Source of the DNA: Lentisphaeria bacterium
GTDB lineage: Bacteria > Verrucomicrobiota > Lentisphaeria > Victivallales > UBA1829
Reading direction: 5' to 3'
NCBI GenBank assembly: GCA_017456805.1
Contig: JAFTIQ010000074.1
Location: forward strand, 6,540-70,539
Length of the DNA: 64,000 nucleotides
Within the stretch, counting starts at the first letter, position 1. Every line of letters starts with the position of its first letter. Shown piece by piece: positions 14,557 to 15,426 of the stretch. The translations under genes were made by a program, and so were the position numbers. The notes under the pieces are model-generated. The model had not been told where the DNA came from, made no database searches, and saw only the letters and a list, made by a program, of their open reading frames with translations.

Positions 14557-15426
14557 TCATTTTTCGTCTTTATATCCTCTGACACCGCCGGCGCCGAACA
14601 GAATATTCGTACCTGGGTAATTTAATCTTTTAATCATAAATTCCATTTCAATAGAACGTTTCAACTCAACGTGACCATCCACGAACACCATATTAGCAGC
14701 GTTTCCATGGGTGGCTCTGCGGACATTTGCTCCTGTTGAGCCTATAGTATACATCCCTTGAACGGTTGCATTTGACGCATCATGAACAGGTTCAGCATCG
14801 AATCCTGATGCAAGCGGCCTTACCCCCGGGATAGAAGCACTTATCTCATATACCGAATCCGCCAACCAAGCCTTTTTCCCGGTTTGAATGACTTCATTGA
14901 TTTTTTGAGCTGCCTTGCCATAACCGGTAGCACCGCCCAGTGCGGTTGGCATGCCATACTGACTGTAGCCGAATGAAATAACCGGAACGCTTGTGGAAGG
15001 ACATTTCAAAATGCCATATTGAGAACCTTCTGCGACTCGTACATTATAAACACTTCCAGTCGGATTCGCGGGATACGTCTTATCAGATTTCACCCCTGTA
15101 TATTCCTGAAGGTAATATCCCCAGGAATTAAAGGCTGCACTCGTACCGCCCATATTGAAACGGAATGACTGCACTGCAAGAAGATGGTCTTCGTTATCAA
15201 GGGTGTATTGAGTCAAAGCACTGCCCAATTGTTTGAGATTCCCCTGACAGCTTGCGATTTGCCCTTTTTGCCTGGCGGATTTTAATGCCGGCAGAAGCAT
15301 CCCGGCAAGGATCGCAATGATTGCAATTACTACTAACAGTTCAATTAAAGTAAAGCACCTGTGCTTTACCCGCCTGCAGGCGGACGCGGCATTCCCGGCT
15401 TCCGCTTGAGCTCTGTCAATCTTCAT
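14557..15426 (-). CDS. H-X9-DG pseudopilin with palindromic leader element (pp4)
   Basis: This 289-residue protein is the first pseudopilin after the regulator, 15 bases downstream of its stop, with GAGGAG before the ATG. The leader is 24 residues, twice the length in pp1 to pp3. The extra part, ACRRVKHRC, is encoded by two adjacent palindromes (15350-15383). FTLIELLVVIAIIAILAG follows, then SCQGNLKQLGSALTQYT, and THGNAANMVFVDGHVEL as the exact H-X9-DG motif. The residue before the cleavage phenylalanine is Cys. If a prepilin peptidase acts here, the palindrome-encoded peptide would be removed with the leader. Confidence 0.9.
   Translation of the reverse strand: MKIDRAQAEAGNAASACRRVKHRCFTLIELLVVIAIIAILAGMLLPALKSARQKGQIASCQGNLKQLGSALTQYTLDNEDHLLAVQSFRFNMGGTSAAFNSWGYYLQEYTGVKSDKTYPANPTGSVYNVRVAEGSQYGILKCPSTSVPVISFGYSQYGMPTALGGATGYGKAAQKINEVIQTGKKAWLADSVYEISASIPGVRPLASGFDAEPVHDASNATVQGMYTIGSTGANVRRATHGNAANMVFVDGHVELKRSIEMEFMIKRLNYPGTNILFGAGGVRGYKDEK
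15350..15383. repeat. Twin palindrome inside pseudopilin leader (element 1)
   Basis: Two abutting inverted repeats lie inside the pp4 coding sequence. Palindrome A, CCGCCTGCAGGCGG (15370-15383), is a perfect 14-base palindrome. Palindrome B (15350-15369) has nine-base arms GTAAAGCAC and GTGCTTTAC around a two-base centre. In the gene's direction A comes first, then B, and B ends inside the codons for Phe-Thr of FTLIELL. Both can form hairpins in mRNA about 44-77 bases from the start codon, or cruciforms in DNA. Elements of the same layout lie in two other pseudopilin genes of the window. Confidence 0.85.

What the first reader, a model, noticed from the sequence alone, without database searches (positions are those of the whole stretch)
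15350..15383. Twin palindromes embedded in a pseudopilin leader; the same structure with different sequence in three of six pseudopilin genes
In pp4, pp5 and pp6 two adjacent palindromes, A then B, lie in frame directly before the FTLIELL codons. The arms differ between genes but stay self-complementary: CCGCC/GGCGG against CCACC/GGTGG, and CAC/GTG against CTC/GAG. This paired change implies selection on structure, or repeated insertion of palindromic DNA. Leaders with the element are 19-28 residues; those without are 5-13. This is as if 11-13 codons had been inserted into a peptide that is cut off and so tolerates change. Rickettsia palindromic elements are a known precedent for in-frame palindromes in genes, but I know of no described case in pseudopilins. 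Candidate roles are a mobile palindrome family, an mRNA control or processing hairpin pair near the start codon, or a recombination site that spreads the pilin N-terminus.
Basis: partly seen in the sequence, partly recalled or inferred. Interest (0 to 1): 0.85.

Follow-up and report, generated by a model that had tools for sequence, protein, structure and literature searches.

The report
Twin palindromes in pseudopilin leader peptides
Some pilin-like genes of what is probably a Lentisphaeria bacterium carry two back-to-back DNA hairpins inside the short leader thought to be cut off the protein, and the hairpins keep pairing although their letters change; related proteins suggest that such leader pieces are swapped between genes.

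Summary
Three of the window's six FTLIELL pseudopilin genes carry two adjacent palindromes, 17 bp centre to centre, running into the F-T codons. Aligned without gaps, 42 of 42 stem cells pair (one as G-T) and 7 of 14 pairs change on both sides. Synonymous recoding matches both hairpins in 1, 0 and 0 of 20,000 trials. None of 166 scored FTLIELL starts from viral contigs and another phylum has them.

No relative's DNA was reachable, but related proteins, some named Lentisphaeria, show the signature. Of 48 distinct A+B leaders, 44 have residue pairs at -3/-1 (Leu-Ser, His/Gln-Cys, Arg-Arg) that a palindrome predicts; shuffles average 28, at most 37.

The element belongs to a larger mosaic: near-identical pilins carry different leaders, and 61 of 265 collected proteins (3 of 120 in the unbiased search) hold two motif copies with an in-frame cassette between them.

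My reading: a coding-palindrome element that works like Rickettsia palindromic elements but is tied to one site, spread as exchangeable 5' cassettes joined at the FTLIELLV codons. Spread is inferred; RNA function or palindrome-restoring mutation remain open.

The parts
15370..15383 (-). palindrome A of pp4, 7-bp perfect arms CCGCCTG/CAGGCGG
15350..15369 (-). palindrome B of pp4, 9-bp arms with 2-nt centre; right arm includes the TTTAC of the F-T codons
14557..15426 (-). pp4 pseudopilin (N_methyl; DUF1559 below cut-off), leader of 24 residues
31415..31430 (-). palindrome A of pp5, 8-bp perfect arms CCCACCTG/CAGGTGGG
31394..31417 (-). palindrome B of pp5, 11-bp arms with 2-nt centre; its GGG is shared with A
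30663..31484 (-). pp5 pseudopilin from ATG (open frame to 31523 with a TTG start), leader of 28 residues
34143..34166 (+). palindrome A of pp6, 24-bp perfect palindrome
34163..34180 (+). palindrome B of pp6, 18-bp perfect palindrome; its TGAA is shared with A
34120..34839 (+). pp6 pseudopilin from ATG (open frame from 34021), leader of 19 residues
15331..15354 (-). FTLIELLV codons of pp4, proposed junction of the exchangeable leader
   Evidence: role inferred from relatives
31377..31400 (-). FTLIELLV codons of pp5
34177..34200 (+). FTLIELLV codons of pp6
11993..12730 (-). pp1, pseudopilin without the element (leader MKQKQ)
12894..13688 (-). pp2, pseudopilin without the twin element (leader of 13 residues; 6-bp stem at centre A only)
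13740..14543 (-). pp3, pseudopilin without the element (leader of 11 residues from ATG)

Best explanation
The A+B stretch is a compact (34-38 bp) coding element of two adjacent hairpins at one fixed place, running into the F-T codons of pseudopilin genes, probably of one Lentisphaeria lineage. What is conserved is pairing and geometry rather than sequence (shown on three DNA copies, supported by residue pairs in relatives). It travels as the 3' end of exchangeable 5' gene cassettes (start codon, leader, hairpins) that are joined to different mature pilins in or next to the FTLIELLV codons (leader/mature decoupling shown at protein level; the recombination step is inferred). Such cassettes are tolerated because prepilin peptidase removes the leader (inferred from the N_methyl family). 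The hairpins are most likely kept perfect because intact copies are passed around as units among the pilin genes, as in a selfish or recombinogenic palindrome family (inferred).
For: Three elements in one window align without gaps; 42 of 42 stem cells pair (41 Watson-Crick, one G-T) and 7 of 14 pairs change on both sides; recoding control; 0 of 166 elsewhere. At protein level 44 of 48 distinct A+B signatures fit pairing; shuffle mean 28.2, maximum 37 in 20,000. In the 66 looser leaders that were chosen without regard to A, the residue at the A loop takes 14 values (commonest 33 of 66), its flanking stem residues are commoner (Ala 48 of 66, Gln 44 of 66): a modest loop-like pattern. A-loop types (CR, HG) and B-arm types (Leu-Ser, Gln-Cys) occur in all four combinations, so the parts are reassorted or change repeatedly. 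Leaders and mature parts are decoupled both ways: P0001/P0019 leader 21 of 24 with mature 126 of 252; P0084/P0085 compared mature 188 of 201 with leader 12 of 27. 61 of 265 proteins have two or more motif copies with a cassette between; P0081 is P0085 plus a 77-residue insert (same 27-residue leader, compared mature 193 of 201); P0122 and P0125 share all 198 compared mature residues but differ in the second half of the cassette.
Against: DNA evidence is three copies from one window; no relative's DNA was reached. For A+B itself no clean filled/empty pair was seen. Many relatives lie on short contigs of a few kb or less, from metagenomes as far as the sources tell, and FTLIELLVVIAIIA is repeated, so some leader swaps may be assembly chimeras. 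Relatives are not independent. The second and third searches used leader residues in the query and lean to Leu-Ser; the signature used for the 48 also fixes which residues may stand in the A stem. In the search that did not use the leader, 8 of 8 distinct signatures fit, but 708 of 20,000 shuffles did as well, and only 3 of its 120 proteins have a double motif. Four of 48 signatures do not fit, and three with Val in A would put T opposite G. No transposase or recombinase family was found among the 26 window frames scanned with Pfam.
Confidence: 0.5

Rival explanations
1. The hairpins are selected as mRNA structure near the start codon: they slow or gate translation, protect or process the message, or couple it to membrane targeting. 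Arms drift with compensation because only the fold matters.
For: Fixed position relative to FTLIELL and conserved pairing (residue pairs); RNAalifold finds both hairpins. In pp5 and pp6 the two hairpins share bases (GGG; TGAA), so the full forms exclude each other, which could be a switch. The one stem cell that is not Watson-Crick is a G-T, which RNA tolerates as G-U.
Against: Stand-alone folding is only mildly better than shuffles: z -1.79, -2.06, -0.78 for pp4, pp5, pp6, against 1.64, 0.87, 1.25 for pp3, pp2, pp1. Three of six paralogues in the window, and similar relatives (P0025, P0159), do without it. No Rfam match.
Confidence: 0.22
2. Palindrome-restoring mutation (quasipalindrome template switching or arm-to-arm conversion) keeps the arms identical without function or transposition, as proposed for coding palindromes of Nematomorpha mitochondria (PMC6649704, abstract and discussion read).
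For: In the three DNA copies no stem pair is broken and double changes are common; 44 of 48 protein signatures fit.
Against: Does not explain why in this window such palindromes lie in pseudopilin leaders at one fixed place, nor the decoupling of leader and mature part.
Confidence: 0.15
3. The palindromes are operators for regulators coded next door; pp4 and pp5 follow GntR-family genes, and arms differ because regulators differ.
For: GntR genes at 15442-16524 and 31619-33034 precede pp4 and pp5; perfect dyads.
Against: The B pattern with at most one mismatch occurs at three places in the window, all three leaders, so no second operator copy upstream of a promoter was seen; a position fixed to the codon is odd for operators; the same SPACRQVKLYS-type element sits on many different pilins.
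Confidence: 0.06
4. The leader mosaic and double motifs are mostly metagenome assembly or gene-calling artefacts, and the palindromes are a family trait inherited by descent.
For: Many relatives are on short contigs; P0250 joins the cassette to an unrelated membrane protein family, which looks chimeric.
Against: Some double-motif proteins lie on contigs of 10-59 kb (for instance P0122, P0238, P0240, P0246, P0254, P0143, P0157) and some clusters have dozens of members (P0190 43, P0262 41); the window's three elements lie in one 64-kb stretch with different flanks.
Confidence: 0.07

Closest known systems
Rickettsia palindromic elements (RPE)
   Same: Palindromic DNA read in frame inside protein genes. 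What I cite of them is from passages of a review (PMC10969869).
   Different: RPEs are about 150 bp and sit in many unrelated genes; this is 34-38 bp and was seen in one gene family at one codon position, in a leader that should be removed. The Nematomorpha paper says RPEs lose repeat identity with time; here stems are intact in the three DNA copies.
REP elements, GTAG- and CGTC-tagged (PMC3733652, passages read)
   Same: Short stem-loops, often as dimers; GTAG type reported from a verrucomicrobium.
   Different: Mostly outside genes and tagged at one end. CGTC stands before A in pp4 and pp5 but not in pp6; in pp4 and pp5 the first stem pairs are C-G, not the A/T given for CGTC REPs.
Coding palindromes of Nematomorpha mitochondria (PMC6649704, abstract and discussion read)
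   Same: Perfect inverted repeats kept inside coding sequence; arms evolve together.
   Different: Those are up to 284 bp, their arms code conserved protein parts, and they are scattered; these are short, paired, and at one fixed site in a leader.
Pilin gene mosaicism by recombination at conserved sequence (Neisseria pilE/pilS; recalled, no call)
   Same: Conserved pilin codons could serve as the crossover point.
   Different: There the variable mature part is exchanged; here it would be the leader and 5' end.

Membership tests
Rickettsia palindromic elements | palindrome translated in frame inside a protein gene | tested here: met
   (open frames; translation itself not observed)
Rickettsia palindromic elements | size near 150 bp | tested here: not met
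   A+B spans 34, 37 and 38 bp; size of RPEs
Rickettsia palindromic elements | inserted in many unrelated genes | tested here: inconclusive
   in the window only pseudopilin leaders; among collected proteins one non-pilin, P0250, a likely chimera; but the protein searches were seeded with pilins and no whole genome was available
Rickettsia palindromic elements | same gene with and without the element, clean insertion | tested here: inconclusive
   A+B: whole leader differs; longer cassette: clean in P0081/P0085
REP elements (CGTC/GTAG) | GTAG or CGTC tag at one end | tested here: not met
   CGTC precedes A in pp4 and pp5 but neither tag flanks pp6 (read)
REP elements (CGTC/GTAG) | associated tyrosine transposase (GTAG type) | tested here: inconclusive
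   none among 26 window frames scanned; rest of the genome not held
MITE | target-site duplication and terminal inverted repeats | tested here: inconclusive
   direct repeats 34 bp apart (TTCA in pp6, CCC in pp5) are visible by eye but 34 is not a multiple of three, and I saw none in pp4 (sequences)
Known structured RNA (Rfam 15) | match at gathering score | tested here: not met
   0 matches in the window
Type IV pilin-like proteins (N_methyl, DUF1559) | N-terminal methylation motif | tested here: met
   pp1, pp4, pp5, pp6 over the Pfam cut-off for PF07963; pp2 and pp3 were not scanned

The most novel reading that the evidence does not exclude
A family of mobile micro-cassettes uses the FTLIELLV codons of type IV pilin-like genes as its landing site, with the twin hairpins directly beside the crossover acting as the folded single-strand recognition site; insertion rebuilds the motif, so that many pilin genes can gain, lose and swap their leaders and expression signals without harming the mature pilin.
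Probability: 0.25. Interest if true: 0.9.

Novelty: new variant of a known kind. Interest (0 to 1): 0.7.

Why it matters
Palindromes rarely overlap coding sequence (PMC6649704, abstract). Here a discarded leader peptide seems to be a refuge where paired DNA structure can be kept and exchanged, in a group in which I recall large, unexplained sets of pilin-like genes. If the cassettes move, it would be a site-specific system that targets the most conserved codons of a pilin gene and restores them, giving a direct test of how coding palindromes spread.

Tried and rejected
Relatives' DNA: the single genome-contig scan used peptide patterns mostly from variable parts and gave one locus, titled Phycisphaerales; no genome is held for the window. 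Pattern scans of viral contigs gave 13 stretches, which I judged chance motif starts with only the fixed AAGC/GCTT letters paired, one chance match in a phage-like contig and nothing. Cassette peptide searches of viral contigs, plasmids and phages found nothing.

The repeat finder at its default length did not list the pp4 palindromes.

Back-translating single peptides: I thought that other leader modules might be palindromic too. Codable stem length does not stand out from shuffled peptides for any of nine peptides, A+B included (28 to 181 of 200 shuffles as good), so that claim is dropped; only covariation across sequences has power.

Shared direct repeats (TTCA, CCC) as target-site duplications: not in step with the reading frame, not seen in pp4, not claimed.

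Frame-shifted pilin origin of the Cys-rich cassette heads (TSHLCC and the like): read by eye, no convincing match, left unexplained. None of four cassette heads is in the window; tblastn hits there are the known pilin starts plus chance.

Terminator: the scan of 30500-35000 marks the pp6 palindrome A on the opposite strand only. Rfam: no match.

Papers: searched the held library; I saw no report of palindromes in pilin leaders or of FTLIELLV-bounded cassettes in those listings (titles and abstract starts only). Seen further: abstract, outline and discussion of PMC6649704; passages of PMC10969869 and PMC3733652. PMC186582 was not held.

Full report
What is there. The window holds six genes with the prepilin motif FTLIELLVV. 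pp4 (minus strand, 14557-15426), pp5 (minus, ATG 31484 to 30663) and pp6 (plus, 34120-34839) have two adjacent palindromes in the leader codons directly before, and overlapping, the F-T codons. pp1, pp2 and pp3 do not have the pair. Perfect arms are 7 and 9 bp in pp4, 8 and 11 bp in pp5, 12 and 9 bp in pp6. The centre of B lies 5 bp before the F codon and that of A 17 bp further upstream in all three (from the sequences). The left arm of B follows the synonymous state of the F codon: GTAAA opposite TTTAC in pp4 and pp5, TGAA opposite TTCA in pp6.

Is it more than chance? In the whole window 28 stems of 7 bp or more were found; six are these arms and they include the two longest; 20 Markov simulations gave longest stems of 8-10. 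The repeat finder at default length did not list the pp4 arms, which are shorter than its minimum. Redrawing synonymous codons 20,000 times per gene reached both observed stems 1, 0 and 0 times for pp4, pp5 and pp6. This is conservative, because the residues themselves partly force B in pp4 and pp6. Starts without 60 bases upstream or not fitting the motif expression were left out, and only identical stretches were merged, so some viral ones are near-copies. These are not close relatives, so this is a control for the motif and not for the lineage.

Covariation in DNA. The three 34-base stretches align without gaps. With a 6-bp A helix and an 8-bp B helix, 42 of 42 cells pair (the outermost A pair of pp4 is T-G, the other 41 are Watson-Crick), 7 of 14 pairs have a change on both sides, and seven never vary (one in A, six in B). 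One of 500 shuffles did as well on pairing percentage, on pairs changed on both sides and on the covariation score, five of 500 on further pair types; slid structures pair 28-44% of cells. Three sequences are few, and the structure was read from these same sequences, so it tends to beat the slid versions for that reason alone. RNAalifold finds the same two hairpins. Folding each transcript start alone gives only z -1.79, -2.06 and -0.78, against 1.64, 0.87 and 1.25 for pp3, pp2 and pp1.

Relatives, protein level. No relative's DNA could be reached. A protein search with pp4 from F25 onward, the leader left out, scored 7,999 candidates and listed the best 120; where the listed name gives an organism it is Lentisphaeria, Lentisphaerae or Victivallales. 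Two of the 120 are the window's own pp4 and pp1. Fourteen of the 120, pp4 among them, carry an A+B type leader such as SACRRVKHQC, PTCRWVKHQC or PACRQVKLKS. Two more searches, with leader residues in the query, added 117 and 28 listed proteins; 105 of the 265 carry the signature.

A palindrome at B makes a testable prediction: the second base of the residue at -3 must pair with the first base of the residue at -1, and the first with the second. So Leu goes with Ser, His or Gln with Cys, Arg with Arg, Pro with Gly. Among 48 distinct A+B signatures 44 obey (33 Leu-Ser, 5 His-Cys, 4 Gln-Cys, 2 Arg-Arg); four do not (two Pro-Ser, one Arg-Gly, one Gln-Arg). Shuffling gives 28.2 on average and at most 37 in 20,000 trials; of all residue pairs only 8.75% are compatible. 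A looser set gave 58 of 66 against a shuffle mean of 49% and a maximum of 64%, and a first, loosest set that still held start-codon MK leaders gave 77% of 73 against 35%, with 12% among 162 leaders without the signature. In the search that did not use the leader, 8 of 8 distinct signatures fit, with 708 of 20,000 shuffles as good. In palindrome A of the 48, Thr goes with Trp (2 of 2) and Ala with Gln or Arg (43 of 43), as ACC/TGG and GCC/C.. pairing would have it, while Val-Gln (3) would put T opposite G; the signature expression itself limits these columns. In the 66 looser leaders, where A was not used for choosing, Ala stands before the loop in 48 and Gln after it in 44, while the loop residue takes 14 values with Cys in 33. 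Shared ancestry is not corrected for anywhere.

A mosaic of leaders. Leaders and mature parts are decoupled. P0001 and P0019 share 21 of 24 leader residues but only 126 of 252 mature residues. P0084 and P0085 share 188 of 201 compared mature residues but 12 of 27 leader residues, with Leu-Ser changed to Gln-Cys. P0025 without and P0026 with the element share 210 of 226 mature residues. In 61 of 265 proteins the motif occurs twice or more in frame, with a cassette between; the spacing is 43 residues in 25 cases and 36 in 16. This is not a frequency: 3 of 120 came from the unbiased search, 35 of 117 and 23 of 28 from the two leader-seeded ones. In the 43-residue class (25 proteins) median identity is 0.68 in the cassette and 0.27 in the mature part after 30 residues; this class was partly collected by cassette similarity. 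P0081 equals P0085 plus a 77-residue insert. P0122 and P0125 are identical over 198 compared mature residues but have different second halves of the cassette. P0013 against P0015 and P0016 is a further filled/empty case, with 199 of 224 and 196 of 226 mature residues. Many cassettes end in the A+B element, others do not. No non-window DNA locus has a double motif in one open frame.

How it most likely works. Shown: the hairpins exist, their pairing holds while sequence changes, they sit at one fixed place, and, in the protein records, leaders behave as units separate from mature pilins. Inferred: 5' cassettes are exchanged by recombination in the repeated FTLIELLV codons; the hairpins ride along or promote the exchange; the leader tolerates it because it is cut off. 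Whether the hairpins are only passengers, act on mRNA, or are restored by template switching cannot be told here. I give 0.5 to the exchangeable, selfish-like palindrome reading, 0.22 to RNA function and 0.15 to palindrome-restoring mutation.

What is known. RPEs are the nearest kind: palindromes read in frame (PMC10969869, passages), but about 150 bp and in many genes. The Nematomorpha paper states that RPEs lose repeat identity with time and offers template switching for perfect coding palindromes (PMC6649704, discussion). CGTC- and GTAG-tagged REPs (PMC3733652, passages) do not fit: pp6 has no tag. I therefore call it a new variant of a known kind and do not file it as an RPE or a REP.

Limits. 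Three DNA copies; probably one lineage; protein records with a real risk of chimeras at a repeated motif; selection of relatives by leader in two of three searches; Pfam run on 26 window frames only.

Noticed in passing
P0081, P0122, P0125, P0132, P0186, P0205 and others: Related pseudopilins with two or three in-frame copies of FTLIELLV separated by recurrent Cys-rich cassettes (heads such as TSHLCCNRMRD, TSQLCRDFF, TAQHCCHFI, NAACKTGVLYNR); the origin of these sequences is unexplained.
   Followed up: partly
P0250: The pilin start plus cassette is fused to the C-terminal half of a PF04018 membrane protein; probably a chimeric contig, possibly a real fusion.
   Followed up: no
window 34143-34180 and 31394-31430: In pp6 and pp5 palindromes A and B share bases (TGAA; GGG), giving an X-A-X'-B-X layout with outer direct repeats 34 bp apart; the two full hairpins exclude each other.
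   Followed up: partly
window 15442-16524 and 31619-33034: GntR-family regulator genes directly precede the pp4-pp1 run and pp5.
   Followed up: partly
window 13627-13709 (pp2 leader): pp2 shows a 6-bp stem at the position of centre A but none at B; chance or a remnant.
   Followed up: no
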